DNA from: an uncultured Spirochaetaceae bacterium
GTDB taxonomy: Bacteria > Spirochaetota > Spirochaetia > Sphaerochaetales > Sphaerochaetaceae
Assembly (NCBI GenBank): GCA_900315435.1
Contig: OMYY01000006.1
Span: 1-64,000, forward strand
Direction: 5' to 3'
Length of the DNA stretch: 64,000 nucleotides
The translations under genes were made by a program, and so were the position numbers. Every line of letters starts with the position of its first letter. Position 1 is the first letter of the stretch. The notes under the pieces are model-generated. The model worked only from the letters and a program-made list of their open reading frames with translations, was not told the DNA's origin and did no database searches. Positions 2,106 to 62,572 of the stretch are shown here, one piece after another.

Positions 2106-2154
2106 GGGCCGATGGCGCTTTTCTTTTCTTCGCTTCTTTCCTAAGATAGTGGGC

Positions 2155-2796
2155 ATGATTACCGATATCGCCTGGGATTTCGACGGGACGCTGTGTGACA
2201 GCTATCCCCTGATCACCTATTCGTTCCAGACAGCTCTGGAACAAGTTGGAGTCCACGTCAGCATGCAGGAGGTACGCAAATGGGTCACCATTACCGTCCC
2301 CGACGCGGCAACGCATTTCCATCAGCTCTACCACTTCGACCTTCCCGTCATGATGCAGCTGTTCCGACAGCGCAACGAGCAGATCGACTATGAGCGTGTC
2401 GTTCCGTTTCCCGGAGTCGGCGACGCGCTGAGGCAGGTGGTCGCCCATGGCGGGAGAAACCACCTGTACACCCACCGGCTTGCCACTTCTGTCCTGCAAT
2501 ACCTGGACCATTATGGCCTCAGGAAGTATTTCACCATCGAGCTCACCGCGGACAAGGGATTTCCCCGCAAGCCCGACCCTACCGCCTTGCTGACGCTGAT
2601 GGAGAAAGGAAAAATCAAGGCGGAGCATCTGCTGATGGTGGGAGACCGCCCGATCGATATCGATGCCGCATTCAACGCCCATGCCGCAAGCTGCTTCTTC
2701 AACTCCAACCACCTTTCCATACCGGTACACGCCACCTACGCGGTAGACTCCTATCCGGAATTCTGCAGTCTGCTGGAGCAGCTGATGAGAGCGTAA
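2155..2796 (+). CDS. HAD-superfamily hydrolase (phosphoglycolate phosphatase-like)
   Basis: 213 residues with all four HAD motifs: DFDGTLCDS at residues 8-16 (nucleophile and acid-base Asp), the Thr in LYTHR (motif II), Lys in FPRKPDP (motif III) and MVGDRPIDIDAA (motif IV). An alpha-helical C1 cap sits between motifs I and II, as in phosphoglycolate phosphatase and beta-phosphoglucomutase relatives. It should dephosphorylate a small phosphometabolite in the cytoplasm; the substrate is not predictable. The start is chosen at MITDIAWDFDG. There is no Shine-Dalgarno; instead TAAGAT (2142-2147) sits seven bases before the ATG, so the mRNA may be leaderless. Confidence 0.85.
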   Translation: MITDIAWDFDGTLCDSYPLITYSFQTALEQVGVHVSMQEVRKWVTITVPDAATHFHQLYHFDLPVMMQLFRQRNEQIDYERVVPFPGVGDALRQVVAHGGRNHLYTHRLATSVLQYLDHYGLRKYFTIELTADKGFPRKPDPTALLTLMEKGKIKAEHLLMVGDRPIDIDAAFNAHAASCFFNSNHLSIPVHATYAVDSYPEFCSLLEQLMRA

Positions 2797-3061
2797 AGAC
2801 AAGAAAGGCAACCTTTGAGTGCACCATGTGCACTGCGTAGGTTGCCAAACATATGGTAGAATGAGGAACCACCGATCTGCTTCTGTGCATTAGCTTTTGA
2901 AGCAGCCCTGATTCTCACCAAGTTCTGAATCAGCAAGCTTCTCGCTTGTTCTGTATAACTATAACCATCTTTTTCCAGCGCGTCAAGGCCCCACCGAAAA
3001 AGTTTTCACCTTGCCGACAATCCTGTTTGGAAGTATCTTAGAAACGAAGAGGAGTCGCCCA
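2797..3061. other. Intergenic region with a hairpin, between the HAD gene and the DtxR gene
   Basis: Contains an inverted repeat GGCAACCT (2807-2814) with AGGTTGCC (2839-2846), enclosing AGTGCA/TGCACT. No T run follows on the plus strand; a T-rich stretch (TTTCTTGTCTTT) follows on the minus strand. It could be a weak HAD terminator or a bound element. The rest (2850-3040) is AT-richer and presumably holds the DtxR promoter. Confidence 0.4.
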
Positions 3062-3430
3062 ATGGTCATGCAGGAAGCAGGCGAGATGTATCTCGAGACA
3101 ATCTTGAGGATCCAGGAAGAGCAGGGATATGCCCGTTCCATCGACGTCGCCAACCGCATGGGGTATTCGAAACCCACCATCAGCGAGCAGATGAAGAAGT
3201 TCCGCGAGGCGGGGCTGGTCTCGTTTGACGACGAGATGCATATCATCCTCACCCAGAAGGGGCTGAAAATCGCCAAGAAAACCTATGAAAGGCATGTGGC
3301 GATCACCCGCTTCCTTGAGGCGATCGGCGTCAGCCCGGCAACCGCCGAGAACGACGCCTGCCGTTTCGAGCACTATATCAGCGACGAAACCTTCAACTGC
3401 ATGAAAGCCTTCGCAAAGGAACACGCCTAG
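3062..3430 (+). CDS. DtxR/MntR-family metal-dependent repressor, iron-type metal site
   Basis: 122 residues: an N-terminal winged helix (helix-turn-helix about 25-50, VANRMGYSKPTISEQMKKF), wing LTQKGLKIAKK, and the helical dimerisation and metal-binding domain. Comparison with DtxR places Met9, Cys100, Glu103 and His104 at the DtxR primary metal site (Met10, Cys102, Glu105, His106), and ACRFEH closely matches DtxR ACRWEH. Bacillus MntR has Asp and Glu in place of the Met and Cys, so iron is the likelier cofactor. The C-terminal SH3-like domain of DtxR is absent, as in MntR. GAGGAG lies seven bases before the ATG. It probably represses the convergent feo operon through the operator-like palindromes at 6654-6697. 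Confidence 0.85.
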   Translation: MVMQEAGEMYLETILRIQEEQGYARSIDVANRMGYSKPTISEQMKKFREAGLVSFDDEMHIILTQKGLKIAKKTYERHVAITRFLEAIGVSPATAENDACRFEHYISDETFNCMKAFAKEHA

Positions 3431-3453
3431 CAGTAACCGTTCCGACATGCATG

Positions 3454-3490
3454 AAGGCCCTCCCCATCGGAATCGGAGGAGGGCCTTTGT
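3454..3490 (+). terminator. Rho-independent terminator after the DtxR gene
   Basis: Ten-bp stem AAGGCCCTCC (3454-3463) with GGAGGGCCTT (3478-3487), followed by TTGTTGGTTTT. It lies between convergent transcripts. Confidence 0.8.
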
Positions 3491-3505
3491 TGGTTTTGCA
3501 CCCGG

Positions 3506-6846: not shown

Positions 6847-8187
6847 GTGTTGTTCCAGGAAGCTAGGAACCTGGTTTTCTCCTCCGCAAATCAGATGCAT
6901 GGAGGATGGCCACAGACGAAGAGGGCAAAGCCCAAAGGTGGCACCACAACTCCGGACAAAATGCCGAACTCGCATCCCGAGATGAGCGTGCACATCCTGA
7001 AAATATCCGATAGAATCAAGGACAACATCTCGCCTAGCGCCTTGGGATTATTCGATAGTGTCACAGAGGAAATCGAGGGAAAGCAGGTAATCAAAGTCCT
7101 TGTTTCCAGCGGACTTGAAAAACCCTATTACATCAAACGAAACGGAATGTCCCCTTCCGGTTGCTACAAGAGGGTTGGTACCTCTACCCTCCCCATGCCA
7201 ACGGCCATGATAGACGCTCTCTACTCAAGACGAATTCATACAACACTCAGAAACATCAAATCTCCCCGGCAAGATTTGGAATTCGCCCAATTGATGATCT
7301 ACTATCAGCAAAAAAGATTCGAGTTAAACGACCAATTTCTCAAAAGCTTGGAGCTCTATACAGAGGACGGGAAATTCAATTACGTCGGATATCTCCTGGC
7401 CGACGAAAACGCCGTTTCCATGAAAGTAGCGAAATATGCAGGAACCGACAAAGTCGACCTCCTGGAAAATGACGAATACGGATACTGCTCCATCATACAG
7501 GCGACCTACAGCATTCTGCAACGATTTCAGGTGGAGAACACGACGAAGGCGAGAATCACGAGTACGGTTAGGGAAGAGAAGAACCTTGTCGACCCAGTGG
7601 CGTTACGTGAGGCAATCATCAACGCTGTTGTCCATAACGACTTCACTCGCGAGATTCCTCCAGTCTTTGAGATTTTTTCAAACAGAATTGAAATCACCTC
7701 TTACGGCGGTCTCATTCTCGGACAGACCAAGGAAGATTTCTTCTCCTGCAGGAGTGTCCCTAGGAATAGGGAGCTGATGCGGGTGTTCAAGGACCTTGGT
7801 CTGGTAGAACAACTTGGTTCCGGAATGAGCAGAATATTGAAGGCCTACAATCGGTCCATTTTCAAAATCTCCGACAACTTCATCCAAGTCGTATTCCCTA
7901 TAGATAATACGAATGAGGGAATAAATGAGGGAATAAATGAGGGAATAAATGAGGGAATAAATGAGGGAATAAATGAGGGAATAAGCCAACGAGAAATCGA
8001 GATTGTGAAACAAATAAAGCTTAATCCTTCAATAACAATGAACGAAATCTCCCACCATCTAGGAGTCTCCATAGCAACTGTCGAACGCGATTTCGATGGT
8101 CTCAAAAAGAAGAAGATTATTGAGCGAAGGGGCTCTTTCAAGAACGGCGTGTGGATCGTGCAAGATCAATCCTCAAAACTCGATTGA
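6847..8187 (+). CDS. AlbA_2/divergent-AAA-type ATP-binding transcriptional regulator-like protein, N-terminus decayed
   Basis: The C-terminal two thirds matches putative regulators of the AlbA_2 (Schlafen AlbA_2) plus HATPase_c_4 type: DPVALREAIINAVVHNDF (N box), FSNRIEITSYGGL (G1-like), RNRELMRVFKDLGLVEQLGSGM, then a linker of six NEGI-type repeats and a winged helix (NEISHHLGVSIATVERDFDGL). The AlbA_2 part is damaged. The start frame gives ARNLVFSSANQMHGG, the expected continuation MATDEEGKA is in the +1 frame (about 6890-6995), and ILKISDRIKDNISPS returns to the first frame. An in-frame TAG at 6787 removes the usual N-terminus. It is either an expressed remnant (GTG 6844, TTG 6847 or ATG 6961) or an early pseudogene. 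The region is AT-richer than its neighbours. Confidence 0.6.
   Translation: MLFQEARNLVFSSANQMHGGWPQTKRAKPKGGTTTPDKMPNSHPEMSVHILKISDRIKDNISPSALGLFDSVTEEIEGKQVIKVLVSSGLEKPYYIKRNGMSPSGCYKRVGTSTLPMPTAMIDALYSRRIHTTLRNIKSPRQDLEFAQLMIYYQQKRFELNDQFLKSLELYTEDGKFNYVGYLLADENAVSMKVAKYAGTDKVDLLENDEYGYCSIIQATYSILQRFQVENTTKARITSTVREEKNLVDPVALREAIINAVVHNDFTREIPPVFEIFSNRIEITSYGGLILGQTKEDFFSCRSVPRNRELMRVFKDLGLVEQLGSGMSRILKAYNRSIFKISDNFIQVVFPIDNTNEGINEGINEGINEGINEGINEGISQREIEIVKQIKLNPSITMNEISHHLGVSIATVERDFDGLKKKKIIERRGSFKNGVWIVQDQSSKLD
7912..7983 (+). repeat. Six perfect 12-bp tandem repeats (AATGAGGGAATA)
   Basis: Six identical in-frame copies encode a repeated N-E-G-I linker between the ATPase-like domain and the winged helix. 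The absence of any base difference between copies points to recent slippage-driven expansion. Copy-number changes would alter linker length but not the frame. Confidence 0.95.
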
Positions 8188-8396: not shown

Positions 8397-8469
8397 TAGC
8401 AGGGGTAGGACTCGGACCTACGGCCTCCGGGTTATGAGCCCGACGAGCTGCCAACTGCTCTACCCTGCG
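8397..8469 (-). tRNA. Initiator tRNA-fMet (anticodon CAT)
   Basis: A 73-nt cloverleaf: acceptor CGCAGGG with CCCTGCT, D arm GAGC/GCTC, anticodon arm with CTCATAA loop, T arm GTAGG/CCTAC with TCCGAGT loop. Two initiator hallmarks are visible: the 1:72 pair is a C-U mismatch, and three G-C pairs (GGG/CCC) flank the anticodon loop. The 3' CCA is not encoded (A73 is followed by AAG), so it must be added by nucleotidyltransferase. The gene stands alone with its own promoter and terminator. Confidence 0.95.
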
Positions 8470-8559: not shown

Positions 8560-9489
8560 TCAAGCGGAAAGGACCCTCAGCGCGTTGCCACTCCACATGG
8601 CATCCAGCTCGCTTTGGGAAAGACCGGCCTTTGCCAGCCTATCGCGCAGTCGGTCCATCTCGGCCACACTTTTCAGCTCGAGCGTTCCCCCGATTCCATC
8701 GAAGTCGGTCCCGATGGCAAGCACCTGGCTGCCTCCGACATTGCGCTCATGGAGCACGTGGCGGACCATATCGTCGACACGGCTCTCGTGCAGCCCGTCA
8801 TCGGAAAGGAAGGATGGGCAGAAATTCAGCCCCATCACCCCTCCCTTGTCACTAAGCGCCCGAATCATCGAGTCGCTCATGTTGCGGGTGGCGCCGGTAA
8901 CAGCCCTGGCATTGCTGTGGCTCGCCCAGAAAGGCTTGGTACTGTACTTGACCACATCCCAGAACCCGCCGTCGTTCAGGTGCGAGACATCGACGATGAT
9001 ATGGTTCTGCTCAAGCAGGCCGACGGCTTCGATTCCCTTCTCCTTCAGCCCCTTCGCCATGACGATCGGGTCCTTGCTGTTCGGCCAGGCAAGCTCGTTC
9101 TCGAAGTTCCAGGTAAGGGTGAAACTCCGCACGCCCCAGCTGGCAAGCGTGGCAACCCTGCCAAGCTCACCCTCAAGGATTCCTCCCTCCTCGGTAGTGA
9201 GAATCGCTCCGCACTTCTGGTTCTGATGGATTTCCCGGGCAGTGCGGACCTGGCTGATTCTGTCCTTGTGCAGTTCCATCTGCCTGACGAACTCGTCATG
9301 CAGGTCGTTCACCCGCTTCCACGGACTCTCCTGGCGCCCTAGATGCACGAACAAGGCGAAGCACTGGGTGCTCCTGTGGTTCGCCTCCAGTTTCTCGATA
9401 TCGACGGAAAGGTCGTTGTGCACGAAGTCCTTATGGTCATCCAGCACGTGGTAGATTGTATCGCAGTGAAGGTCAATCATCGTATCCAT
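8560..9489 (-). CDS. Membrane dipeptidase-type (M19 family) zinc dipeptidase
   Basis: 309 residues. The renal-dipeptidase/M19 fold is recognisable from the metal motifs: IDLHCDTIYHVL (His-x-Asp), the bridging Glu in NFENELAW, His in VDVSHLND and in WASHSNARA, and Asp in GTDFDGIGG. These enzymes cleave dipeptides, often with a D- or dehydro-residue at the C-side. No signal peptide, so it is cytoplasmic here despite the family name. The start at 9489 is chosen because CATACT lies seven bases upstream with TTGTAC 17 bp further up, giving a leaderless mRNA; no Shine-Dalgarno exists for any candidate start. It is divergent from thioredoxin. Confidence 0.87.
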   Translation of the reverse strand: MDTMIDLHCDTIYHVLDDHKDFVHNDLSVDIEKLEANHRSTQCFALFVHLGRQESPWKRVNDLHDEFVRQMELHKDRISQVRTAREIHQNQKCGAILTTEEGGILEGELGRVATLASWGVRSFTLTWNFENELAWPNSKDPIVMAKGLKEKGIEAVGLLEQNHIIVDVSHLNDGGFWDVVKYSTKPFWASHSNARAVTGATRNMSDSMIRALSDKGGVMGLNFCPSFLSDDGLHESRVDDMVRHVLHERNVGGSQVLAIGTDFDGIGGTLELKSVAEMDRLRDRLAKAGLSQSELDAMWSGNALRVLSA

Positions 9490-9496
9490 GTCCAAG

Positions 9497-9525
9497 AGTA
9501 TGGCACCTTCCCCTCTTGCGTACAA
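9497..9525 (-). promoter_or_regulatory. Promoter of the M19 dipeptidase gene (leaderless type)
   Basis: On the minus strand, -35 TTGTAC (9520-9525), 17-bp spacer, -10 CATACT (9497-9502), then seven bases to the ATG. The predicted transcription start coincides with the start codon. Confidence 0.65.
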
Positions 9526-9531
9526 GCGGAC

Positions 9532-9560
9532 TTGCCGCTCCTCAATGCCGTGTGTATGTT
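9532..9560 (+). promoter_or_regulatory. Promoter of the thioredoxin gene (leaderless type)
   Basis: -35 TTGCCG (9532-9537), 17-bp spacer, -10 TATGTT (9555-9560), then six bases to the ATG. The -35 boxes of this promoter and the divergent dipeptidase promoter are only six bp apart. Confidence 0.65.
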
Positions 9561-9566
9561 AATGCC

Positions 9567-9881
9567 ATGATTGTCAACGTGACGAAAGATACATTCCGGC
9601 AGGAAGTGCTGGAAAGCGGCAAACCGGTAATCGTCGATTTCTGGGCCACCTGGTGCGGTCCGTGCCAGATGCAGGCCAGGATTTTCGAAGAGCTGGAAAA
9701 GACCGAGGGCGACAAGATCAAGATCTGCAAGGTCAATGTGGACGAGAACGAGGAACTGGCCGGCCAGTTCGGCATCGAGTCCATTCCCACCCTGCTCTTC
9801 TACAAAAACGGCAATCAGATTGGAGAAGCCGTCGGAGTCAGACCCCGGGGAAGCCTGCTCGCATACCTGGACATGCAGTAA
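9567..9881 (+). CDS. Thioredoxin
   Basis: 104 residues, a typical length, with the active site WCGPC (residues 29-33) in VDFWATWCGPCQMQAR, the cis-Pro in SIPTLLFYKNG, and the conserved Asp in VNVDENEELA. It is a cytosolic dithiol-disulfide oxidoreductase. There is no ribosome-binding site before MIVNVTKDTF; a -10-like TATGTT lies six bases upstream. The stop codon abuts the stop codon of the convergent yitT gene with no spacer and no terminator. Confidence 0.93.
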   Translation: MIVNVTKDTFRQEVLESGKPVIVDFWATWCGPCQMQARIFEELEKTEGDKIKICKVNVDENEELAGQFGIESIPTLLFYKNGNQIGEAVGVRPRGSLLAYLDMQ

Positions 9882-14849: not shown

Positions 14850-14946
14850 CCCAGAAGGGTCCTGAATGGAAGGGCGGTATCGGTACCATGGAAGCATTCC
14901 GCGCCAAGGCTTCTCTTTCCATCGGCAAACGGATACACTTTCGCCC

Positions 14947-15612
14947 ATGAGCGAGATGTGCTACCGCTGTTTCCGGCCCAAATCGAACTGCCTGTGCCCG
15001 TACATCCACGAGGCGGACACTGGCGTCAAATTCGTCATCCTCATGCACCCCAAGGAGGCATTCCACCAAAGAACAGGAACGGGCAGGCTGGCGCAGCTCG
15101 CCTTGCAAGAAAGCGAGATCATCATCGGCATCGATTTCAGCGGCAACGAGCGGCTGAACAAACTACTGGGGGATCCACAATACTATCCGGTGATGCTCTA
15201 TCCGGGTGTCGACGCCTATACCAGTGACAGTCCCCTGCTCCGGCAGCAGGTGGGGAAAGGCCGCAGACTCCTGGTGGTGGTAGTCGATGCCACGTGGTTC
15301 CTTGCCGCGAAGATGGTACGATTGAGCAGGAATCTGCAACTTCTACCAAAGCTCTCGTTCAATCGAGGCTATCATTCGGAGTTCACCTTCAAGCACGAAC
15401 CGGCAGAGTATTGTCTCTCTACCATCGAGAGTTGCTACTATCTGGTCAAGGAATTGCAGGAAGGGGGGATCGCCAAACCCTGCGATGTGGAATCGATGAT
15501 GGGGGTATTCCGGAGAATGGTCAAACACCAGCTGGACAGCGAGGCGGCACGACGGGCAATCGAGGGAGACGGCCCCCAGCATCCCTGGAAACACGACAGG
15601 GACAACTGCTAG
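14947..15612 (+). CDS. DTW-domain protein (tRNA-uridine aminocarboxypropyltransferase family)
   Basis: 221 residues. An N-terminal zinc-type cysteine set CYRCFRPKSNCLC (Cys5, 8, 15, 17) is followed by the HPKEAFHQRTGTGR motif and the DxTW signature (Asp114-Ala-Thr-Trp117 in VVDATW). DTW proteins such as E. coli TapT transfer an aminocarboxypropyl group from S-adenosylmethionine to uridine in tRNA. The start at MSEMCYRC is preferred over longer frames; there is no ribosome-binding site, but TACACT (14934-14939) lies seven bases before the ATG. Its stop overlaps the recX stop on the other strand by four bases. Confidence 0.85.
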   Translation: MSEMCYRCFRPKSNCLCPYIHEADTGVKFVILMHPKEAFHQRTGTGRLAQLALQESEIIIGIDFSGNERLNKLLGDPQYYPVMLYPGVDAYTSDSPLLRQQVGKGRRLLVVVVDATWFLAAKMVRLSRNLQLLPKLSFNRGYHSEFTFKHEPAEYCLSTIESCYYLVKELQEGGIAKPCDVESMMGVFRRMVKHQLDSEAARRAIEGDGPQHPWKHDRDNC

Positions 15613-28678: not shown

Positions 28679-29533
28679 CTTCGGGATCAAGTGCCACGAG
28701 AAGGATGCCGCCCTTGCGCAAAGAAATTCCAACCTAGGGCTCGGCATCTCATCTCCCGTGTAAGGAAAGCTCAAAACAAGGAGACCGAATACAGCCTCCT
28801 TGGAACCCTCAAAGGGGAGATGACATGCAGTCATTTGTTTCCCAGGGAAACGAGTTGTATTACCGGATCTGCCAAAAAAACGGGAAGCACGCATTTGTGC
28901 GAACTTGATTTCCTCCTTCCCGATGACGCAAAAGCCATCCCGGTCGAATCTAGAGCTCGCGTACGAAAGAACATGCCTCGATTGACGCGTTCAAGCAGAA
29001 ATTCCCGGCTCTTGCCACCAATCCCTGCATCATCAGCCAGAAAGACAAAGATATCCATATGTATCCCTGCTATCTTGCATGGTGTAGCAAAGCAAAAAAG
29101 ACGCAAGGTTTTCTGCCATCCCCGCAATAAGGCCTAAAAACTTCTCGTTCTCCGTAAAAGACATGTTGGACCATCATGTACCACATAAATTGCGGCAGTG
29201 CCTGATATGGACTCAAAGGGGGCGTTCTAAACGAATGGAGAGAATCAATGTGCTTGAAGATAAAACCCACACCCTTATATGCTTTCGGCTTCCACGGTTT
29301 ATGACAATCTTCTGATTTTTCCCTTAGTTTAGGCATTGAGCATCTCGCCACCCCAGCCAGAAATAAGACTCTCTAGCACCACCGGCAGCCATGCAGATGC
29401 CTCACCTTCTCTTCCTGTCCGTACACCACCATGACCAGAGCTTACATCGCACAGGAAACTGTAGCAGTCCATAGATATCTTCTTGATAGAATCAAAAAAT
29501 CCTTGACGCAATAGCGAAACTATCACAGAGTAT
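28679..29533. other. 855 bp without a supported gene
   Basis: Base composition shifts here from GC-rich to AT-richer. Short open stretches occur in several frames (for example a 27-codon frame from 28824, and an open segment near 28975-29130 that starts after a TAG), but none has a ribosome-binding site or a recognisable domain. It looks like decayed coding sequence at the left edge of the nagB-TRAP cluster. The last 60 bases hold that cluster's promoter region. Confidence 0.45.
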
Positions 29534-29559
29534 AGGAAACGATTACGTAAACGTTTCCT
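29534..29559. promoter_or_regulatory. Candidate LacI-family operator before the nagB-TRAP cluster
   Basis: Inverted repeat AGGAAACG (29534-29541) with CGTTTCCT (29552-29559), enclosing the palindrome TTACGTAA (29543-29550). CG-centred palindromes of this kind are typical LacI-family sites, and a LacI-family gene ends the cluster. The site lies 16 bp before the first ATG. Confidence 0.6.
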
Positions 29560-29574
29560 TAAAAGAAGGCTATC

Positions 29575-30378
29575 ATGGACGAATCTCTTCACTACTCATT
29601 CAAGATGACCATCTCTCCCTGCCGCAAAGCGATGGGAGTTGCTGCCGGCATATGTGGCGAGCGTATACTGTGCAGTCTGTTGGAGGAAAAAGCACATGTT
29701 CGTGTAATTATGGGATCTGCTCCCAGCCAAGACGATGTTCTAGCTTACCTCCGGAACAGTAAGAAAATCGATTGGACAAGGATTGAAGTGTTCCACATGG
29801 ACGAATACGTCGGAATCTCTCCTGATGACAAAGCCGCATTCTCAAACTATCTGTGTAGAACGCTCCTCGATTATGTCCCGATTGGAGCCTTCCACAGGAT
29901 AATCGCCGACACCAGAGAGCCGGAAGAAATATGCAAAGAATATGGAGCCCTTCTCAATGAGGCACCGATAGACCTGGTTTTCCTCGGAATAGGGGAAAAC
30001 GGACATATTGCTTTCAACGACCCAGCCATGGCGGATTTAAGAGATCCTCTCACCATGAAAGTCGTCCAACTAGACGATGCTTGCAGAATGCAACAAGTAC
30101 ATGACGGTTGTTTCCCAACCATTGATGCAGTACCTAAACAGGCGGTCACGCTTACAGTTCCCACATTGTTGAAAGGATCCCATCTGGTCTGCACTGTTCC
30201 AACCATCAGAAAGAACAATGCATGCCTGCGACTGGTCATGGGAAGCATCAGCGCCGCTTGTCCCGCAACAGCGATGAGGATACACCCTGATGCAAACATT
30301 TTCATGGACAATGAGTCAGGGAAAGGCATTCCAGAGTTTGAAACTGCCGAAACATGTATCGGCAAAAAAGACAAATAG
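29575..30378 (+). CDS. NagB-family amino-sugar phosphate deaminase/isomerase
   Basis: 267 residues. NagB fold motifs: VRVIMGSAPSQDD (phosphate loop), VFHMDEYVGIS (general-base Asp) and LGIGENGHIAFNDPAMADL (catalytic His loop). It is clearly diverged from the nagB at 10782-11534. AGAAGG precedes the ATG. It is first in a cluster with a TRAP transporter, a cupin-like protein and a LacI regulator, so a role in the catabolism of an imported amino sugar or amino-sugar acid is inferred. Base usage is AT-richer than in flanking operons. Confidence 0.85.
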   Translation: MDESLHYSFKMTISPCRKAMGVAAGICGERILCSLLEEKAHVRVIMGSAPSQDDVLAYLRNSKKIDWTRIEVFHMDEYVGISPDDKAAFSNYLCRTLLDYVPIGAFHRIIADTREPEEICKEYGALLNEAPIDLVFLGIGENGHIAFNDPAMADLRDPLTMKVVQLDDACRMQQVHDGCFPTIDAVPKQAVTLTVPTLLKGSHLVCTVPTIRKNNACLRLVMGSISAACPATAMRIHPDANIFMDNESGKGIPEFETAETCIGKKDK

Positions 30379-30388
30379 GAGGTTTGTC

Positions 30389-31384
30389 ATGAAAAAACTA
30401 TTGTCAGCATTGGCAATCGTTTCCGTGTTGTTGGTTCCATTGTTCGCAAATGGGAAACAAGAGCAGAAAGAGGCTGTTACAGGCAAAGGCCCGTATGAAG
30501 TGAAATTCTCTACCGAGAATGGAGCAGAAGACGTAGAGACAAAAGCCCTAATGGAAATCAAGGAAATCCTCAACAAAAGCGGGAAATTCAAGATTGAGGT
30601 ATTCATCGGCGGAGCTCTTGGAGAAAACGACGACACACTCGAGCAGGCGATTCAAGGCGCACCTATTGTAACCGTATCAGATCCGGGACGGCTTATGAGT
30701 TTCGTCAACGCCTATGGAATCATACAGATGCCATACTTCATCGACGACATCTCGGTCGTCAACAGGCTTATGGATACGGACATCTACAAGAACTGGGAAG
30801 ACCAGTTTGAAAGCCAAGGAATCAAGCTCCTTACGTCAAATTGGTACAGTGGGCCACGGAATTTCATCCTCAACAAGGAAGTCCATCAACCTTCCGACCT
30901 GAAGGGACAGAAAATCAGGACAATTGCCAGTCCTCTGTTCACGGAAAGCGTCAATGCGATGGGTGCCGTTGCGACTCCCATGTCATGGACCGAAGTCTAT
31001 TCCGGCATCGAGCAAAAAGCCATCGATGGCTGCGAAGCACAAACACCGACCTCGTATGCATCCCATCTCTGGGAAATCTGCAAGTACACAAACAAGACTG
31101 AGCATTTTCAGCTGATTGGGTGCCCCTGCATCGGAACTACGACATTCAACAGTTGGGATCCAGAAGCCCAAAATCTGTTTGTGCAGACCTTCCGTGACGT
31201 TGGGAAAAAATACCAGACACTCGTTCTCAACATGATTGAGGAAGAAGAGAAAGAGATGGCTAAGAAAGGAATGGTATTTGTCCAAGTTGACAAAACGCCC
31301 TTCAAGAAGGCCGTCGAACCCGTGTACGAAAAGCTTGGTTATACCGAACTGAAAGAACAATTGGTCAAGGAACTTGGCCTATAA
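30389..31384 (+). CDS. dctP: TRAP transporter substrate-binding protein DctP
   Basis: 331 residues with a signal peptide (KKLLSALAIVSVLLVPLFANG; no lipobox Cys). The DctP-type fold is marked by FIGGALGENDDTLEQAIQGAP, PSDLKGQKIRTIASPLFTESVNAMGAVATPMSWTEVYSGIEQKAIDG and the late conserved WDPEAQNLF. It binds the substrate, usually a carboxylate, in the periplasm for the sodium-driven DctQM permease. AGGAGG overlaps the nagB stop, ten bp before the ATG. A hairpin separates it from dctQ. Confidence 0.93.
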   Translation: MKKLLSALAIVSVLLVPLFANGKQEQKEAVTGKGPYEVKFSTENGAEDVETKALMEIKEILNKSGKFKIEVFIGGALGENDDTLEQAIQGAPIVTVSDPGRLMSFVNAYGIIQMPYFIDDISVVNRLMDTDIYKNWEDQFESQGIKLLTSNWYSGPRNFILNKEVHQPSDLKGQKIRTIASPLFTESVNAMGAVATPMSWTEVYSGIEQKAIDGCEAQTPTSYASHLWEICKYTNKTEHFQLIGCPCIGTTTFNSWDPEAQNLFVQTFRDVGKKYQTLVLNMIEEEEKEMAKKGMVFVQVDKTPFKKAVEPVYEKLGYTELKEQLVKELGL

Positions 31385-31392
31385 TCTTATCA

Positions 31393-31418
31393 GGTTCCCC
31401 GCCTTTTGGTGGGGAACC
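31393..31418 (+). other. Hairpin between dctP and dctQ
   Basis: Eight-bp stem GGTTCCCC (31393-31400) with GGGGAACC (31411-31418), no T run. It probably stabilises the dctP message relative to the permease genes. Confidence 0.7.
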
Positions 31419-31432
31419 GTTGGGAGAAAGAT

Positions 31433-33226: not shown

Positions 33227-33625
33227 ATGCGGAAAATCAATATCAGAACCAATTCCATTCATGGTTTCCAGGATGCGTATGCTAACACATCCTGGAGAAT
33301 TTCCCATGCAAGGTATGATGCAAGGACCAACGACATCGCAACCTTCGGCATCCTTGAGAAACACCTCGAGACTGAAGAGGCTTTTTTGCTACTGGAAGGA
33401 AACGCGTTCCTCGTGACCGCAGGCAAAGAAAATATACCATCTCCCCCATTGGTAACTCCCTTTACGAAGGGGGAAGTTCTCCTTGTAGAGAAGGCCGAAT
33501 GGCATGTATGTATACATACCCCAGGCAGTCATATCCTCATCATCGAGAACGGGAAAGAATCGAAAAGCGAACAGAGCGTTATCGACGCATCCATGCGCAA
33601 GGCGATTGTTAGTCGTGTTTCATAG
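33227..33625 (+). CDS. Small cupin-like protein
   Basis: 132 residues. The central part FGILEKHLETEEAFLLLEGNAFLVTAG and GEVLLVEKAEWHVCIHTPGSHILIIENG reads like one cupin barrel with conserved His and Glu at metal-binding positions. It starts five bases after dctM without a strong ribosome-binding site, so coupling is likely. By position it may handle an anomer or epimer step for the substrate of the TRAP transporter. Precise family not recognised. Confidence 0.65.
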   Translation: MRKINIRTNSIHGFQDAYANTSWRISHARYDARTNDIATFGILEKHLETEEAFLLLEGNAFLVTAGKENIPSPPLVTPFTKGEVLLVEKAEWHVCIHTPGSHILIIENGKESKSEQSVIDASMRKAIVSRVS

Positions 33626-33681
33626 ACGGCCTGCCGATTTACGCATATGATGAACAAGAAGAAAGAATTGGTGGCACGCTG

Positions 33682-34740
33682 ATGGCTACGCTCAAAGATA
33701 TATCGAAAGCAACCGGTTACTCGCTTGTCTCCATTCACCGGGCCCTTTACCATAAGGAGGGTTTGAGTGACGAAACAAGGCAAAAAATCCTTGATACCGT
33801 CAAAGCGATGGGATACGAGGTCAACTACATGGCATCCTCTCTCAAGAGGAAACCCCTGCATGTCGTCTTCGTAGGCAAGAAACCCCGAAAACCATTTGAT
33901 TACCATGATATGCTCTCCCAAGGAGTAAGGGATGCCTTCCACCAAAACCAAGGGCTGAACATCGAGTTGAAGGAGTATTACTTTTTTGGCGCATCTCCTG
34001 TCGAGCAAGAAGAGATGCAATGCCAAATTCTAGATACCCTCTATGGTCTTCCCAACCTTGACGGAGTCGTGATCATGCCTGCCAGTACAGACATCAAACT
34101 CCAGTTTGCCGTTCAGAAACTGATAAGCAGGAAGATTCCTGTTGTTTTTGCCGACGACTCTTTCGAACAAATGGACTATTTCTGTGCAGTCCAACCATTC
34201 AATGACCGCATTGGGCAAACAGGTGCGGAATTCATGAGCATGATCTGCCCTCCAGGCAAAATACTTGTCGCTCTTGGAAGTCCCAACAGCAAGGGCCAGT
34301 CGCAAAATTTCCAAGGATTCGAAACCTATCTCAAGGAACATGCCCCCCGTTATTCGTGCATCCCTGTGGAGAGTTGCGACAACGAGGAACAGCTGGTACG
34401 GAATCTGGCTTCCAAAATTGATGGCCAGGTCGTCGGTCTCTACACAGTCCGGGAATCCAACACTCCGGCCCTGTGTAAGGCGGCACGGCTCTCCGGCCGC
34501 ACAGACCTGCGGGTCATCGGATGCGACCTCTCCAAGGAAAACCAAGCGTTCCTCGAAAAAGGCATCCTTACCGCCATTCTTGACATGGACTCCTATCGCC
34601 AAGGCTACCTGGCGATGCACGCATTGCAAGACTATCTGCTCAAGGGCACCACTCCCAGCCACAAGCTCATGACCGTCCCCGTCCGGCTGGTGATCAGAAG
34701 CAATCTGGACTATTACAAGGCAGAGCTTCCAAACAGCTGA
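33682..34740 (+). CDS. LacI-family transcriptional regulator
   Basis: 352 residues. N-terminal helix-turn-helix LKDISKATGYSLVSIHRALYHKEGLSDETRQKI with hinge helix NYMASSLKRK, then a periplasmic-binding-protein-like sensor (LDGVVIMPAS, KIPVVFADDSFEQMDYFCAVQPFNDRIGQTGAEFM). The recognition helix begins SLVSIHRAL instead of the common SxxTVSRAL, so its operator may differ. It is the last gene of the nagB-TRAP cluster and the natural candidate to bind the palindrome at 29534-29559. Confidence 0.9.
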   Translation: MATLKDISKATGYSLVSIHRALYHKEGLSDETRQKILDTVKAMGYEVNYMASSLKRKPLHVVFVGKKPRKPFDYHDMLSQGVRDAFHQNQGLNIELKEYYFFGASPVEQEEMQCQILDTLYGLPNLDGVVIMPASTDIKLQFAVQKLISRKIPVVFADDSFEQMDYFCAVQPFNDRIGQTGAEFMSMICPPGKILVALGSPNSKGQSQNFQGFETYLKEHAPRYSCIPVESCDNEEQLVRNLASKIDGQVVGLYTVRESNTPALCKAARLSGRTDLRVIGCDLSKENQAFLEKGILTAILDMDSYRQGYLAMHALQDYLLKGTTPSHKLMTVPVRLVIRSNLDYYKAELPNS

Positions 34741-38299: not shown

Positions 38300-38329
38300 T
38301 TGCACTATCTCTTCGATTAAAATTATAAT
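38300..38329 (+). promoter_or_regulatory. Promoter of the SGNH hydrolase gene (leaderless type)
   Basis: -35 TTGCAC (38300-38305), 18-bp spacer, perfect -10 TATAAT (38324-38329), then eight bases to the ATG at 38338. The predicted start is one or two bases before the ATG and no ribosome-binding site exists. Confidence 0.75.
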
Positions 38330-38337: not shown

Positions 38338-38979
38338 ATGAGAAGATGGATCTGCCTGCTCGCCATGCTTTTTGCCTCGACCGCCCTGCCGGCCGTGCCG
38401 GTCCGTGTCGCCTGCGTCGGGGACAGCATCACCTATGGGCTGCGGCTCATCGACCGGAAGAAGGACTGCTACCCGGCAGTGCTGCAACGACTGCTGGGGA
38501 ACGGATACGAGGTACGCAATTACGGAGCCAACAGCGCCACCGTCCAGGAGAGCGGGAACCGTCCCTATACCCGTAAGGACGTCTACCGGGAAAGCCTTGC
38601 CTGGCAACCTGACATCGTCCTCCTGCTCCTCGGCACCAACGACTCCAAGAAACAGAATTGGGAAGGCGTCGATTCCTACATGGAAGCAATGCGCAAAATG
38701 GCCGCAAGCTACGAGAACCTTCCGAGCAACCCGGAGATCTATGTGATGACGCCACCGAAGGCTTTCAGCGGCTATGCCGGAATCAACGACGACCATATCG
38801 GGGAGGAAGCCGAGGCGCTCCTCGCCCAGAACGGCTACCCGGTCATCGACCTGCGCGCGGCCTTCGAGGGACACCGGCAGTGGATCGGCAAGGACGGCAT
38901 CCATCCCAACAGGGAAGGCGCCTCGGAAATTGCAACACGCATTGCCAAAAAGTTGCAATACGATGCTGGAAAACCCTAA
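38338..38979 (+). CDS. Secreted SGNH/GDSL hydrolase
   Basis: 213 residues with a signal peptide (RRWICLLAMLFASTALPA). The four SGNH blocks are visible: GDSITYG (nucleophile Ser), NYGANSATVQ (Gly/Asn oxyanion), LLLGTNDSK (Asn) and KDGIHPN (catalytic Asp and His). Members include sialate and acetyl-xylan esterases and lysophospholipases. Periplasmic or exported carbohydrate-ester cleavage is plausible. It stands between the acyltransferase/GT8 operon and the BMP gene. Confidence 0.87.
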   Translation: MRRWICLLAMLFASTALPAVPVRVACVGDSITYGLRLIDRKKDCYPAVLQRLLGNGYEVRNYGANSATVQESGNRPYTRKDVYRESLAWQPDIVLLLLGTNDSKKQNWEGVDSYMEAMRKMAASYENLPSNPEIYVMTPPKAFSGYAGINDDHIGEEAEALLAQNGYPVIDLRAAFEGHRQWIGKDGIHPNREGASEIATRIAKKLQYDAGKP

Positions 38980-43810: not shown

Positions 43811-43842
43811 GGATGAACGATTTTTCGTGTTAACATTCATCC
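43811..43842. promoter_or_regulatory. Wide inverted repeat just before the lacI-type start codon
   Basis: GGATGAA (43811-43817) with TTCATCC (43836-43842). A second possible promoter, TTGGAT (43809-43814), 16-bp spacer, TAACAT (43831-43836), lies inside it, seven bases before the GTG start. The half-site TGAA is shared with the palindrome at 43754. Confidence 0.5.
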
Positions 43843-43843: not shown

Positions 43844-44854
43844 GTGAGCGTGACACTGAAGGACATCGCACAGGCTACGGGATACTCCATCAACACCGTC
43901 AGCAGGGCGCTACGGGACGACCGGCGTATCAGTGATGAAGCCAAAGAGAAGATCCATGGCGAGGCCAAACGGCTCCGCTATATCCCCAACGCGATCGCCA
44001 GCGCGATGCGCTCAGTCCACACCAAGAGTATCGGGGTGGTCACCGCCGACAGCGCCAATCCTTTCTTCAGCGAGGTGAACAAGGGAATCGAGGCGATGGC
44101 GGAAAAAGCCGGCTGCCATATTCTGGTGGGCAGCACCGAGGAATCCCTTACCCGGGAGAAGAACCTGGTCAACCTCTTCCTTTCCCGCATGGTCGACGGC
44201 CTGGTGGTCATGCCGGTCTCCGACACGAGCGAGGAGCATCTGGAGCTCTACCGCTCGCTCCCCGTCCCTTTCATTTTCGCAGGCAGGCATCTGGAAGGCT
44301 TTGACGACCACTGCATCCTCCACGACGACGTCACCGGGGAAAAGGAGGTGGTCCGCCACCTCTTCTCCCACGGACACCGGCAGATCCTGATCCTTACCGG
44401 ACCGGAGCAGGTGTCCAACACACAAGACCGGCTGCAGGGGGTGCGCGAGGCGTTCAGGGAAGCAGGGGTCCCCTTGGAAGAGTCCTCCATCTGGGCGACG
44501 AACGGCCATGCCGAAGAGGGATATGCCGCCGTCAACCAGGCGCTGAACAAGGGCCTTCCCTTCACCGCGATCACCTGCTTCAACGACCTGGTCGCCATGG
44601 GAGCGTTGAAAAGTCTTTCCGAGAACGGGCTTTCCTGCCCGCGCCAAGTGGAGGTGGTCGGCTATGACAACCTGTACATGTCCCAGTTCATGCAACCGGC
44701 CCTGACCACTGTCGATGTCCCGAAGTTCCGCCTGGGCTATACCGCCATGGACCGCTTGGTCTGCCATATCAAGAATCCGTCGGCGGCTTATGAGAAGGTA
44801 ATGATGCCCACCCGGCTGGTATTCCGTGAAAGTACCAGGGGTGGCAAGTACTAA
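43844..44854 (+). CDS. LacI-family transcriptional regulator
   Basis: 336 residues. Helix-turn-helix LKDIAQATGYSINTVSRALRDDRRISDEAKEKI, hinge PNAIASAMRSVHTKSIG, then the sensor domain (VDGLVVMPVSD, PVPFIFAGRHLEGFDDHCILHDDVTG, ITCFNDLVAMGAL, VVGYDNLYMSQFMQPALTTVDVP). The start is GTG with no ribosome-binding site. It lies 33 bp ahead of the sugar-binding protein gene on the same strand, so it is probably part of, and controls, the sugar-importer operon. Confidence 0.92.
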   Translation: MSVTLKDIAQATGYSINTVSRALRDDRRISDEAKEKIHGEAKRLRYIPNAIASAMRSVHTKSIGVVTADSANPFFSEVNKGIEAMAEKAGCHILVGSTEESLTREKNLVNLFLSRMVDGLVVMPVSDTSEEHLELYRSLPVPFIFAGRHLEGFDDHCILHDDVTGEKEVVRHLFSHGHRQILILTGPEQVSNTQDRLQGVREAFREAGVPLEESSIWATNGHAEEGYAAVNQALNKGLPFTAITCFNDLVAMGALKSLSENGLSCPRQVEVVGYDNLYMSQFMQPALTTVDVPKFRLGYTAMDRLVCHIKNPSAAYEKVMMPTRLVFRESTRGGKY

Positions 44855-50700: not shown

Positions 50701-50727
50701 GCGGCCGATTTCCCGCATACTGTCCCC

Positions 50728-51705
50728 ATGCGTCTGACCATGCTATTCCTTTCCTCGATCCTGCTGCTTTCCGGGTGCCGGCAGCAGGGCTACGACCGGC
50801 AGAGCCTGATCGCCTTGGGAACCGTCTGCACGATCCAGCTTCCCGCCGGTACCAACCCAAAGGTCTATGACCAAGTGCAGAAGGCGATAGATACCGTCGA
50901 TGGAGAACTTTCCCGCACCAAGGACTCCAGCCAGATCGCCATCCTCAACAAGGAAAAACAGGCGGTCCTCTCCGATGACGTGCTGGCGCTCCTGGAAGAA
51001 GGCATCGAGGTGGCGGAGAAGACCGATGGAGCCTTCGACCCGGCAATCGGCGCGCTGACGGACATGTGGGCGATCGCCACCGACCATCCCCGGGTGCCTA
51101 GCGAGGAGGAAATCCGGGGAGCCGACACCAACTGGCGGCACATCCGGATTGCGGGAAACCTGGTTACCATCCCCTCCAACATGGAAATCGACCTAGGAGC
51201 CATCGGCAAGGGCTACGCCGCCGACCGGATCAAGAAAACGCTATGGGAGAACGGTATTACCAGCGCGCTGGTCAACCTAGGCGGCAACATCTACGCCATC
51301 GGGGAAAAACAAGGTGGCGACCCTTGGGTCATCGGTCTGAGGGACCCGAACGGAAGCGAGGGACAAGCCTTCATCACCATCCAGGTCCGTGATCTCTCCT
51401 TGGTCACGAGCGGCGCCTACGAGCGCAACTTCACCCAGGACGGGGTCACCTACCACCATATCCTGGACCGAAAGAGCGGCTACCCGGCCGAAAGCGACCT
51501 CTCCTCCGCCAGCATCATAGGCCCTTCCAGCACCCTCTGCGACGCTCTCTCGACCAGCGTCTTCGTGCTGGGAAGCGAGAAAGGAATGGAACTTGTCGAA
51601 TCCCTGTCCGGATACGCCTGTGTCCTGGTAAAGAAAGATGGCACGATCCTTTTTTCCCATGGGTTCCCCTACCCGTACCAGCTGGTCAAGCACGTATCTG
51701 GTTGA
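50728..51705 (+). CDS. apbE: FAD:protein FMN transferase (ApbE), lipoprotein
   Basis: 325 residues. The lipobox LLLSGC places Cys17 at the mature N-terminus. ApbE motifs: DGAFDPAIGAL, MEIDLGAIGKGYAADRI, ALVNLGGNIYAIG, SGAYERNF and HHILDRKSGYPA with Mg-binding residues. It attaches FMN covalently to Thr residues of exported flavoproteins such as RnfG/NqrC subunits. There is no ribosome-binding site; CATACT lies six bases before the ATG. No flavinylated partner is encoded nearby. Confidence 0.93.
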   Translation: MRLTMLFLSSILLLSGCRQQGYDRQSLIALGTVCTIQLPAGTNPKVYDQVQKAIDTVDGELSRTKDSSQIAILNKEKQAVLSDDVLALLEEGIEVAEKTDGAFDPAIGALTDMWAIATDHPRVPSEEEIRGADTNWRHIRIAGNLVTIPSNMEIDLGAIGKGYAADRIKKTLWENGITSALVNLGGNIYAIGEKQGGDPWVIGLRDPNGSEGQAFITIQVRDLSLVTSGAYERNFTQDGVTYHHILDRKSGYPAESDLSSASIIGPSSTLCDALSTSVFVLGSEKGMELVESLSGYACVLVKKDGTILFSHGFPYPYQLVKHVSG

Positions 51706-60727: not shown

Positions 60728-60802
60728 TTCATACTCTCCAACCAAGGCAAACGCAGGAAACCGGCCACCCGAAGGCGGCCAGCTCCGCACAAAACCAGAA
60801 CA

Positions 60803-62374
60803 TCAAAGTTCCTTGACCCAGTTCTTGCACTCATAGACGCCGAACATGTTGACCGAGACTCCACTGACCTTCTTGCTCTCGGCCCAGGCGAATCCGTTGC
60901 TGTACAGCGGAATCACGTTGGCGTTGTCGTACACCCTCTGCTGGATCTCATGGTACATCTGGATGCGCTTGGTCTCGTCCAGCTCCCTGAAAGCCGCAGC
61001 GTTCAAGTCCTCCAACGGCTGGTCGACAAGACCGGTATACCAGGCCTTGCACTGGTCGTAGTCGACCGTCCAGCCGGTCACCTCGGAAGGATCCTGGATG
61101 TCGTCAATCCACATCAGCAACGTGCATTGATGCTGCAGGCCACGATACTTGGCAGAAAGGCTGGCCCGCTCCATCAGTTCGATGGTGCAGTCGAACCCCG
61201 CCTTGTCCACCTCGCTCTTGATCAGCGTTGCCGCTTGCTCGTAGAAGGTGCTGCCGCTGGAAACGGAGATAGTGAACTTGACCGGTTCGGTGTATCCTGC
61301 CTCCTTCAGCATCTGCTTGGACTTTTCCGGATCGTAGGTGGTCACCGGCAGGTCCAGGTTGCACCACTTGCCCTCGGTCGGGCTGACCAAGGCGACAACC
61401 GGCTTGCCGAAACCGCCGGCCAGAGTGGAGAGTTCCTCCTTGTTCAGGGCGTAATACATGGCCCTGCGTACCGCCGGATCATTGAACGGCTCCAGCGTGG
61501 TGTTCAGAATCAGATACCGGATCTGGGTCGACTCAAAGACATCCAGGTTCAAGTTCTTGTTGTTCCTGATCATCGGCAGCAGCGAATACGGCACATCATT
61601 GATCACATCGACCTGTCCGGACTGCAACTGCATCAGGCGCGTGTTGTCGTCGCTGATCAGGTTGTAGCGGATACGTTTGGTCTTCGGATACCGGGAATCC
61701 CAGTAATAGGGGTTGGCCACCAAGGTGAGAGACTCGCCACGGTTCCAGTTCTCCAACATGTAGGGGCCGGTTCCGAGGGGCTGGGCGCCGAACTCGGCGT
61801 CGCCGACCGACTCCCAGTGCTTCTTGCTGCCGACCACCATGTTGAAGTTGGCCAAGTCGTACAGGAAGGGAGCGGCAGGCTCCTTCAGCTTGATCACCAC
61901 CTGGCTGTCGGTCGCCTCGACGGTATCAATCATCTCTGCGATGAAACGATAGCTGGACTCCTCGTAGTCTCGGGCACGGTACAGCGACCAGACCCAGTCG
62001 TCGCCAGTGACCGGCGTGCCATCGGAGAACTTGACTCCCTGGCGGAGATTGAAGGTATAGGTCATGCCGTCAGGACTGATAGTCCAATCGGTGGCGAGCA
62101 CCGGAAGAATGTTTCCATCAGGACCGACGGTGACCAGGCCCTCGTACACCTGCTGGGTGACACCGACCTCGGCCCCGCCGACACCCGCTCCATTCGGATC
62201 CAAGGTAAGCGGCTCGGAGAGCTTGCCGACCACAATCTGGTCAGCGTACTTCGGCGCCGCAGCGGCTGTTCCGCCCTTTGATGCCGGAGCGGATGACTCG
62301 GAAGCGCCTCCTGCAACGACTGGCAGCAGTGCGAACAATGATACGACAGCCAGCGCCAACAACGTTTTCTTCAT
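60803..62374 (-). CDS. Peptide ABC transporter substrate-binding protein (SBP family 5)
   Basis: 523 residues. Signal peptide TLLALAVVSLFALLPVVAGG with no lipobox Cys, so it is probably soluble in the periplasm. SBP family 5 marks: LTLDPNGAGVGGAEVGVTQQVYEGLVTV, WTISPDGMTYTFNLRQGVKFSDGTPVTGDDWVWSLYR and LGTGPYMLENW. GGAGGTG precedes the ATG at 62374. First gene of the operon SBP-dppBCDF-M42-M18, behind a good promoter with paired TGTATACA sites. Confidence 0.92.
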   Translation of the reverse strand: MKKTLLALAVVSLFALLPVVAGGASESSAPASKGGTAAAAPKYADQIVVGKLSEPLTLDPNGAGVGGAEVGVTQQVYEGLVTVGPDGNILPVLATDWTISPDGMTYTFNLRQGVKFSDGTPVTGDDWVWSLYRARDYEESSYRFIAEMIDTVEATDSQVVIKLKEPAAPFLYDLANFNMVVGSKKHWESVGDAEFGAQPLGTGPYMLENWNRGESLTLVANPYYWDSRYPKTKRIRYNLISDDNTRLMQLQSGQVDVINDVPYSLLPMIRNNKNLNLDVFESTQIRYLILNTTLEPFNDPAVRRAMYYALNKEELSTLAGGFGKPVVALVSPTEGKWCNLDLPVTTYDPEKSKQMLKEAGYTEPVKFTISVSSGSTFYEQAATLIKSEVDKAGFDCTIELMERASLSAKYRGLQHQCTLLMWIDDIQDPSEVTGWTVDYDQCKAWYTGLVDQPLEDLNAAAFRELDETKRIQMYHEIQQRVYDNANVIPLYSNGFAWAESKKVSGVSVNMFGVYECKNWVKEL

Positions 62375-62445
62375 ACCAACACCTCCAAAATTGAAGTAGA
62401 ACCAAAAGCTCCTCCCCATCGAGAGGATGCTTATCCGTTGCAGAT

Positions 62446-62474
62446 ATAGTATCTACTTTAAAAACCAGTAACAA
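62446..62474 (-). promoter_or_regulatory. Promoter of the second peptide-import operon
   Basis: On the minus strand, -35 TTGTTA (62469-62474), 17-bp spacer, -10 TACTAT (62446-62451). Confidence 0.7.
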
Positions 62475-62479
62475 GCACC

Positions 62480-62518
62480 TGTATACATATTTTTGCAAAA
62501 TCTTACATGCTGTATACA
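62480..62518. promoter_or_regulatory. Pair of identical palindromes TGTATACA upstream of the peptide operon
   Basis: TGTATACA occurs at 62480-62487, five bases upstream of the -35, and at 62511-62518. The 31-bp offset equals about three helical turns, so a dimeric regulator could bind both on one face. The position upstream of the -35 fits an activator, or a GntR-type repressor forming a loop. Confidence 0.6.
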
Positions 62519-62572
62519 AAAACAATTTGAAACAACCTTTCCCATTTATCCACTTTCTGCTAGATTGTGGGC

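What the first reader, a model, noticed from the sequence alone, without database searches (positions are those of the whole stretch)
2142..62572. Recurring leaderless-gene signature across the window
At least eight genes have no Shine-Dalgarno but carry a TANNNT/CATACT-like hexamer ending 6-8 nt before the start codon: HAD (2142-2147), M19 (9497-9502), thioredoxin (9555-9560), DTW (14934-14939), SGNH hydrolase (38324-38329), LacI at 43844 (43831-43836), apbE (50716-50721) and aroA (62561-62566). Genes with a clear Shine-Dalgarno do not show this. Leaderless mRNAs with exactly this spacing are well known in Actinobacteria and Deinococcus; I know of no description in this lineage. Good -35 boxes are present for four of the eight (M19, thioredoxin, SGNH hydrolase, LacI).
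Basis: partly seen in the sequence, partly recalled or inferred. Interest (0 to 1): 0.7.

Follow-up and report, generated by a model that had tools for sequence, protein, structure and literature searches.

The report
Leaderless genes in a spirochaete
About one gene in thirteen of this spirochaete appears to be copied into RNA starting right at its protein start codon, with no ribosome landing site in front; this is a known style of gene expression, here shown by computation to be common in many relatives of the same class.

Summary
In 733 kb (26%) of the window's genome, genes were called from coding score alone. Genes without a Shine-Dalgarno (SD) carry TANNNT 6-8 nt before the start at 38 sites in 214 genes, against 6.9 expected; SD genes show 3 in 239. 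The sites come with TTG at a 17-nt spacer (12 of 38), a pyrimidine at -1 (33 of 37 genes), and are rare inside operons. A motif search over the last 20 nt, no motif given, finds TATAAT 6-7 nt before the start. A model trained on other genomes estimates 7.7% of genes, 15% of operon-first genes, 0% of SD genes. The lineage is Spirochaetota. The signal passes p<1e-3 in 94 of 118 class genomes sampled. aroA keeps it in 21 of 29 orthologues at mostly 46-57% protein identity. In the sister species the eight hexamers keep 47 of 48 bases; M19 is the weakest case. Leaderless transcription from ordinary sigma70-type promoters is the best reading. It is not new for the phylum: Leptospira interrogans was mapped experimentally in 2017, and spirochaetes were predicted in 2011. 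No transcript was measured here.

The parts
2142..2147 (+). -10 hexamer TAAGAT of the HAD hydrolase gene 2155-2796 (gap 7)
   Evidence: sequence; identical in G002
2155..2796 (+). HAD hydrolase gene, leaderless candidate
   Evidence: PF13419
9520..9525 (-). -35 TTGTAC of M19, spacer 17
   Evidence: sequence; kept in G002
9497..9502 (-). -10 hexamer CATACT of M19 (gap 7); weakest of the eight
   Evidence: identical in G002; the 8 tested orthologues outside the species pair show no TANNNT at gap 4-9
8560..9489 (-). peptidase M19 gene
   Evidence: PF01244
9532..9537 (+). -35 TTGCCG of thioredoxin, spacer 17
   Evidence: sequence; kept in G002
9555..9560 (+). -10 hexamer TATGTT of thioredoxin (gap 6)
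   Evidence: kept in G002 although 7 of 17 spacer bases differ
9567..9881 (+). thioredoxin gene, leaderless candidate
   Evidence: PF00085
14934..14939 (+). -10 hexamer TACACT of DTW gene (gap 7)
   Evidence: identical in G002
14947..15612 (+). DTW-domain gene, leaderless candidate
   Evidence: PF03942
38300..38305 (+). -35 TTGCAC of the SGNH gene, spacer 18
   Evidence: sequence; TTG not kept at this place in G002
38324..38329 (+). -10 hexamer TATAAT of the SGNH gene (gap 8)
   Evidence: TATACT at the same gap in G002 despite a 6-nt gap in the spacer alignment
38338..38979 (+). SGNH/GDSL hydrolase gene, leaderless candidate
   Evidence: PF13472
43809..43814 (+). -35 TTGGAT of LacI, spacer 16
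   Evidence: sequence
43831..43836 (+). -10 hexamer TAACAT of LacI (gap 7)
   Evidence: identical in G002
43844..44854 (+). LacI-family regulator gene, GTG start, leaderless candidate
   Evidence: PF00532, PF00356
50716..50721 (+). -10 hexamer CATACT of apbE (gap 6), 27 nt between gene and upstream gene
   Evidence: identical in G002
50728..51705 (+). apbE gene, leaderless candidate
   Evidence: PF02424
62561..62566 (+). -10 hexamer TAGATT of aroA (gap 6)
   Evidence: TANNNT at gap 6-8 in 21 of 29 orthologues
62573..63820 (+). aroA (EPSP synthase) gene, leaderless candidate with deep conservation
   Evidence: PF00275

Best explanation
These are leaderless genes. An ordinary housekeeping-type promoter (often a TTG-like -35, 17-nt spacer, TANNNT -10) sits so close to the gene that its -10 box lies at about -12 to -7 relative to the start codon, which puts the first transcribed base on the A of ATG or within a few nt of it. 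The mRNA has no room for a Shine-Dalgarno, so the ribosome must recognise the 5'-terminal AUG with initiator tRNA, as known for leaderless mRNAs elsewhere (70S or 30S-IF2 route; established knowledge, not tested here). The genome uses two routes: leaderless starts at roughly 8% of genes, mostly the first gene of an operon, and Shine-Dalgarno initiation for most genes inside operons and many first genes. Shown here: promoter anatomy, position, phase with the start, conservation. Inferred: the transcript 5' end and the ribosomal route.
For: Peak: 38 TANNNT sites (37 genes) at gap 6-8 in 214 non-SD genes against 6.9 expected; best non-overlapping triple of gaps 14 (adjacent), at most 11 further off. 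SD genes 3 of 239, Fisher p 4e-10; operon-first 44 of 345, operon-internal 6 of 227, p 1.4e-5. -35: TTG at spacer exactly 17 in 12 of 38 sites; 5 or 6 matches to TTGACA in 11 of 38, against 1 of 95 at internal ATGs and 5 of 67 at other gaps of non-SD genes (SD genes, gap 15-30, where real promoters are expected: 11 of 70). Pyrimidine at -1 in 33 of 37 (89%) against 59% in SD genes; ATG in 35 of 37. EM on the last 20 nt of 472 pooled non-SD operon-first genes, no motif given: TATAAT at gap 6-7, fraction 0.30. Trained without G000: 31% [21-42] of its non-SD first genes, 7.7% of all, 0 in its internal and SD genes; slid 6 nt or more, 0-3.5%. Whole genome: TTG-N20-TANNNT-N6-ATG 61 hits, N9 18, N12 13. 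aroA 21 of 29 orthologues against 0 of 22 for an SD-led permease. Sister species: 47 of 48 hexamer bases kept, 105 of 136 spacer bases, one-sided p 3e-4.
Against: No RNA data. A first EM run with 45 nt upstream on G000 alone gave a GGAAAA motif instead. M19 has CATACT, an SD-like stretch and no counterpart in the 8 tested orthologues outside the species pair. apbE also has CATACT and only 27 nt to its upstream gene. The DTW orthologue of G001 has its TANNNT at gap 9. Four of the eight (HAD, DTW, apbE, aroA) lack a TTG -35. 8 of 29 aroA orthologues lack the signal at gap 6-8. 24 of 118 class genomes do not pass p<1e-3. 16S rRNA was not found in this assembly, so the anti-SD could not be read.
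Confidence: 0.9

Rival explanations
1. The hexamers are real promoters but the true start codon lies downstream, so the mRNAs have ordinary leaders with a Shine-Dalgarno.
For: In 6 of 37 candidate genes a downstream in-frame start with an SD match of 5 or more lies within 90 nt.
Against: The rate is no higher than in the other non-SD genes (27 of 177) or SD genes (60 of 239); seven of the eight window genes have no such start, M19 has one GTG at +66. Most aroA orthologues have their ATG within two codons of the proposed start. The phase with ATG, the pyrimidine at -1 and the ATG preference would be unexplained.
Confidence: 0.04
2. The TA-rich hexamer is a translation signal (unstructured or S1-binding stretch), not a promoter.
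For: AT-rich biases upstream of non-SD genes are discussed as Pribnow boxes or S1 sites in other phyla (PMC5397173, passages).
Against: TTG at exactly 17 nt (12 of 38), rarity in operon-internal genes (6 of 227), and TANNNT letters rather than general A+T richness.
Confidence: 0.03
3. Chance matches in A+T-rich intergenic DNA.
For: TANNNT is a loose pattern; two of the eight hexamers do not even match it.
Against: Peak over flanking positions and internal-ATG controls, out-of-sample mixture with shifted controls, repeated in seven other genomes, orthologue conservation.
Confidence: 0.02

Closest known systems
Leaderless transcripts of Leptospira interrogans (2017, PMC5243855; passages read)
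   Same: Same phylum; about 440 genes with 5' UTR under 10 nt, out of about 2865 primary start sites, experimentally mapped.
   Different: Other class by my knowledge of the taxonomy; apart from sigma54 elements the authors found no common promoter motif, whereas here a -10 and a 17-nt-spaced -35 are clear. In 54 genomes of other classes of the phylum my pattern shows a small excess (2878 against 2151).
Predicted leaderless genes in Spirochaetes (2011, PMC3160421; Table 2 and passages read)
   Same: Same idea, by computation; 6 of 18 spirochaete genomes, average 3.9% (1.8-6.9%).
   Different: Here 7.7% [4.2-11.1] of genes in this genome by an out-of-sample mixture. The genomes it used were not seen by name.
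Leaderless transcription in Akkermansia muciniphila and Bifidobacterium pseudolongum (2016, PMC4782308; passages read)
   Same: 10% and 15% of mapped start sites lie on the start codon; mixed with leadered transcripts.
   Different: Other phyla.
Leaderless genes of Actinobacteria and Deinococcus-Thermus
   Same: -10 box about 7 nt before the start (recalled).
   Different: Higher fractions there: 19.2% and 39.4% on average in PMC3160421 Table 2.

Membership tests
bacterial leaderless genes | 5' end of the mRNA at the start codon (5' UTR of about 0-5 nt) | not testable with these tools
   no RNA data for this genome
bacterial leaderless genes | -10 element ending about 6-8 nt before the start codon | tested here: met
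   38 sites in 214 non-SD genes against 6.9; found without a preset motif in the last 20 nt, not in a wider run on G000 alone
bacterial leaderless genes | -35 element at a normal spacer from that -10 | tested here: met
   as a group: TTG at spacer 17 in 12 of 38; 11 of 38 against 1 of 95. Of the eight window genes four have a TTG -35
bacterial leaderless genes | no Shine-Dalgarno in these genes, the signal absent from SD genes | tested here: met
   3 of 239 SD genes; mixture fraction 0 in SD genes. For M19 alone doubtful
bacterial leaderless genes | mostly first genes of transcription units | tested here: met
   44 of 345 against 6 of 227; operons inferred from spacing under 40 nt
bacterial leaderless genes | conservation of the architecture in orthologues | tested here: met
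   TANNNT at gap 6-8: aroA 21 of 29, DTW 2 of 3, M19 0 of 10, permease control 0 of 22. Met for aroA, not for M19; the other five were compared with G002 only
bacterial leaderless genes | ribosomes start on the 5'-terminal AUG without SD pairing | not testable with these tools
   needs biochemistry

The most novel reading that the evidence does not exclude
Leaderless initiation is an ancestral, selectively kept mode throughout much of the class Spirochaetia. It has been fixed on particular genes such as aroA for about as long as this family has existed, and is paired with a second discrete architecture in which transcription starts at the Shine-Dalgarno itself, so that in these bacteria the promoter position decides which of two initiation routes a transcript uses.
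Probability: 0.35. Interest if true: 0.55.

Novelty: new member of a known kind. Interest (0 to 1): 0.35.

Why it matters
It extends leaderless expression, measured in Leptospira, to the family of this spirochaete and, by computation, to most sampled genomes of its class. It gives gene-start annotation a usable signal there, since gene finders that expect an SD may misplace such starts. It also names a testable case, aroA, in which the leaderless layout is kept over deep divergence, so cultured members of the class could be used to ask what leaderless starts are selected for.

Tried and rejected
Guess that the lineage was Verrucomicrobia (from size and GC; paper searches): rejected, aroA matches Spirochaetales. 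De novo motif search on 45 nt upstream of the 164 non-SD first genes of G000 alone: its best motif was GGAAAA spread over many positions, not the -10. Restricted to the last 20 nt and pooled over eight genomes it gave TATAAT; that restriction was my choice after the first run. The same run on 137 operon-internal non-SD genes gave an ATACTG-like motif without a position peak. First ortholog comparison by reciprocal best hits gave too few pairs (2 candidate genes); replaced by DNA alignment. In G001 only 2 candidate genes could be aligned and the result was uninformative. M19 orthologues do not support an old leaderless start. 16S search in the own genome found nothing, so the anti-SD was not read. 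In the class scan 24 of 118 genomes did not reach p<1e-3, among them two of the own family (G017, G007) and all seven of family f19, which shows no excess (184, 201, 238); the one-genome families f21 (21, 23, 18) and f30 (70, 73, 36) show none over the N9 control either. f19 has small genomes and may be Borrelia, which I did not test; a paper says leaderless transcripts are frequent in Borrelia, so my pattern may simply fail in very A+T-rich genomes. No outgroup outside the phylum was searched with the pattern. The names of G060, G043 and G023 in my notes are recalled from genome lengths, not from a call. The gene caller is home-made; it missed part of a low-GC stretch (about 28.7-31.9 kb) and placed some starts wrongly (aroA and SGNH in G002; probably 33808 in the window). 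Rows dropped: 596 genes called, 587 with usable upstream sequence; 15 more without a known upstream neighbour are left out of the first/internal comparison. In one search: aroA, the 30 loci given of 52 genomes with a match, 1 dropped for want of a start; permease, 23 of the 30 loci given (L182-L204; the other 7 mostly match only the C-terminal half), 1 dropped; M19, 10 (L160-L169) of 19 loci. Papers opened without relevant content: PMC12687308 and PMC4105405 mention the word in their references only; [quoted passage not shown] the GeneMarkS-2 paper itself is not held.
Full report
What was checked. The finding names eight genes with a -10-like hexamer 6-8 nt before the start codon. All eight are at the stated places, the protein names are right, and a gene caller that uses only coding score chose the same eight starts.

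Where the window comes from. The genome is a draft of 2.80 Mb in 85 contigs; the window is part of contig C38. The sampled GC is 56.6%. The aroA protein is closest to a MAG named Spirochaetales bacterium (89%, JAQYHB010000002.1), then to other spirochaetes at 48-50%, among them Candidatus Aphodenecus pullistercoris. The 89% relative is G002, in the same genus. So the lineage is Spirochaetota.

Genome-wide test. In 733,320 bases of this genome 596 genes were called and 587 had usable upstream sequence. Genes were split by the longest match to AAGGAGGTGAT between -20 and -4: under 4 is 'non-SD' (214), 5 or more is 'SD' (239), 134 lie between. TANNNT ending 6-8 nt before the start occurs at 38 sites in 37 non-SD genes; the flanking positions predict 6.9. 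In SD genes there are 3 in 239 (Fisher p 4e-10). Operon-first genes have it in 44 of 345, operon-internal genes in 6 of 227. The same peak appears in the two congeners G002 (16 against 3.3) and G001 (21 against 4.1), in three other genomes of the family, G023 (8 against 1.9), G004 (10 against 2.3) and G012 (9 against 0.6), and in two of the class, G060 (14 against 2.6) and G043 (4 against 0.9).

It is a promoter. Measured from the hexamer, TTG peaks at exactly the 17-nt spacer (12 of 38 sites; 4 at 16 and 3 at 18). Five or six matches to TTGACA occur in 11 of 38 sites, against 1 of 95 for TANNNT before internal ATGs and 5 of 67 at other gaps of non-SD genes; SD genes at gaps 15-30, where promoters of leadered genes are expected, have 11 of 70. 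The base before the start is C or T in 33 of 37 candidates (89%), against 59% in SD genes, which fits a transcription start at the A of ATG; start codons are ATG in 35 and GTG in 2. An EM search without a preset motif, on the last 20 nt of 472 pooled non-SD operon-first genes from eight genomes, returns TATAAT with the position mass at gaps 6 and 7 and a mixture fraction of 0.30; 137 operon-internal non-SD genes give a motif without a position peak. An earlier, wider run on G000 alone did not find it. A model trained without G000 estimates 31% [21-42] of its non-SD first genes, 15% of its first genes, 7.7% [4.2-11.1] of all genes, and 0 for internal and SD genes; when the same model is slid upstream by 6 nt or more the fraction in non-SD first genes falls to 0-3.5%.

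Conservation. In the sister species G002 all eight hexamers are found at the same gap, 47 of 48 bases identical, while the 17-nt spacers keep 105 of 136 (one-sided p 3e-4). Thioredoxin is the clearest: 7 of 17 spacer bases differ but TATGTT and TTGCCG stay. For aroA, 21 of 29 orthologues have TANNNT at gap 6-8 and 2 have an SD match of 5 or more. These are 17 of 21 in the family, own genome included, and 4 of 8 in other families of the class. Apart from G002 (89%) the identities are 46-57%, where intergenic DNA is not expected to align; the commonest hexamer is TATAGT (10 of the 21). An SD-led permease used as control has 0 of 22. M19 has 0 of 10, so its case rests on the species pair only; DTW was found in 3 of 61 genomes, 2 of which have it at gap 6-8 and one at gap 9. 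The other five genes were compared with G002 only.

Distribution. Whole-genome counts of TTG-N20-TANNNT-N6-ATG against the same pattern with 9 or 12 N: own genome 61, 18, 13. Over 118 genomes of the class the sums are 8163, 3553 and 2763; 108 of 118 genomes have more N6 than either control and 94 of 118 pass p<1e-3. Family f19 (7 genomes) has no excess (184, 201, 238), nor have the single genomes of f21 and f30 over N9. In 54 genomes of other classes of the phylum the ratio N6 to N9 is only 1.34 (2878 to 2151). This pattern needs a TTG -35 and is blunt in A+T-rich genomes, so a lack of excess is weak evidence; one paper states that leaderless mRNAs are frequent in Borrelia, and another maps about 440 in Leptospira without a shared promoter motif other than sigma54 elements.

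Alternatives. A downstream start with an SD is no commoner among the candidates than among other genes (6 of 37 against 27 of 177 and 60 of 239). A pure translation signal does not explain the -35 spacing or the rarity in operon-internal genes.

Novelty. Leaderless transcription is long known in bacteria, and in this phylum it is mapped in Leptospira (PMC5243855) and predicted in 6 of 18 spirochaete genomes (PMC3160421 Table 2). My literature searches (open-licence PMC only, seen as listings, with passages of the papers named) found no report for this family and no class-wide survey; the GeneMarkS-2 paper, which classified thousands of genomes, is not held. The finding is therefore a well-supported new member of a known kind. 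The added value is the size of the effect here, its spread in the class, and the deep conservation at aroA.

What is shown and what is inferred. Shown: promoter anatomy, its phase with the start codon, its rarity in SD and operon-internal genes, its conservation. Inferred: that the transcript begins on the start codon, and that ribosomes start there without an SD.

Noticed in passing
SD-led operon-first genes of eight genomes; in G000 TANNNT gap 18: A second promoter position: in 359 SD genes TANNNT peaks at 17-20 nt before the start (64 sites) with TTG at spacer 17 (13), i.e. the transcript would begin about at the Shine-Dalgarno itself. Gaps 7-15 hold few sites, partly because the SD lies there.
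   Followed up: partly
window 28691-34740: Stretch with low GC (0.487 at 28-32 kb) holding a glucosamine-6-phosphate-isomerase-like protein, TRAP transporter DctP and DctM, and a LacI-type regulator; my gene caller missed part of it, so it may be horizontally acquired.
   Followed up: partly
window 6847-8187: Protein with a RecG-C-terminal-like (HATPase_c_4) and a weak Schlafen AlbA_2 match plus HTH matches, not called as a gene by composition, next to tRNA-Met 8397-8469.
   Followed up: no
window 9490-9566: Divergent M19 and thioredoxin genes only 77 nt apart; their two -35 boxes lie back to back, 6 nt apart (9520-9525 on -, 9532-9537 on +).
   Followed up: no
aroA orthologues L052-L079: The -10 of aroA takes the form TATAGT in 10 of the 21 orthologues that have it at gap 6-8; some have TTG about 17 nt upstream.
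   Followed up: partly
family f19 genomes G054, G076, G092, G106, G117, G128, G138: The only family with several sampled genomes in the class that shows no excess of the leaderless pattern; small genomes, identity not tested.
   Followed up: no
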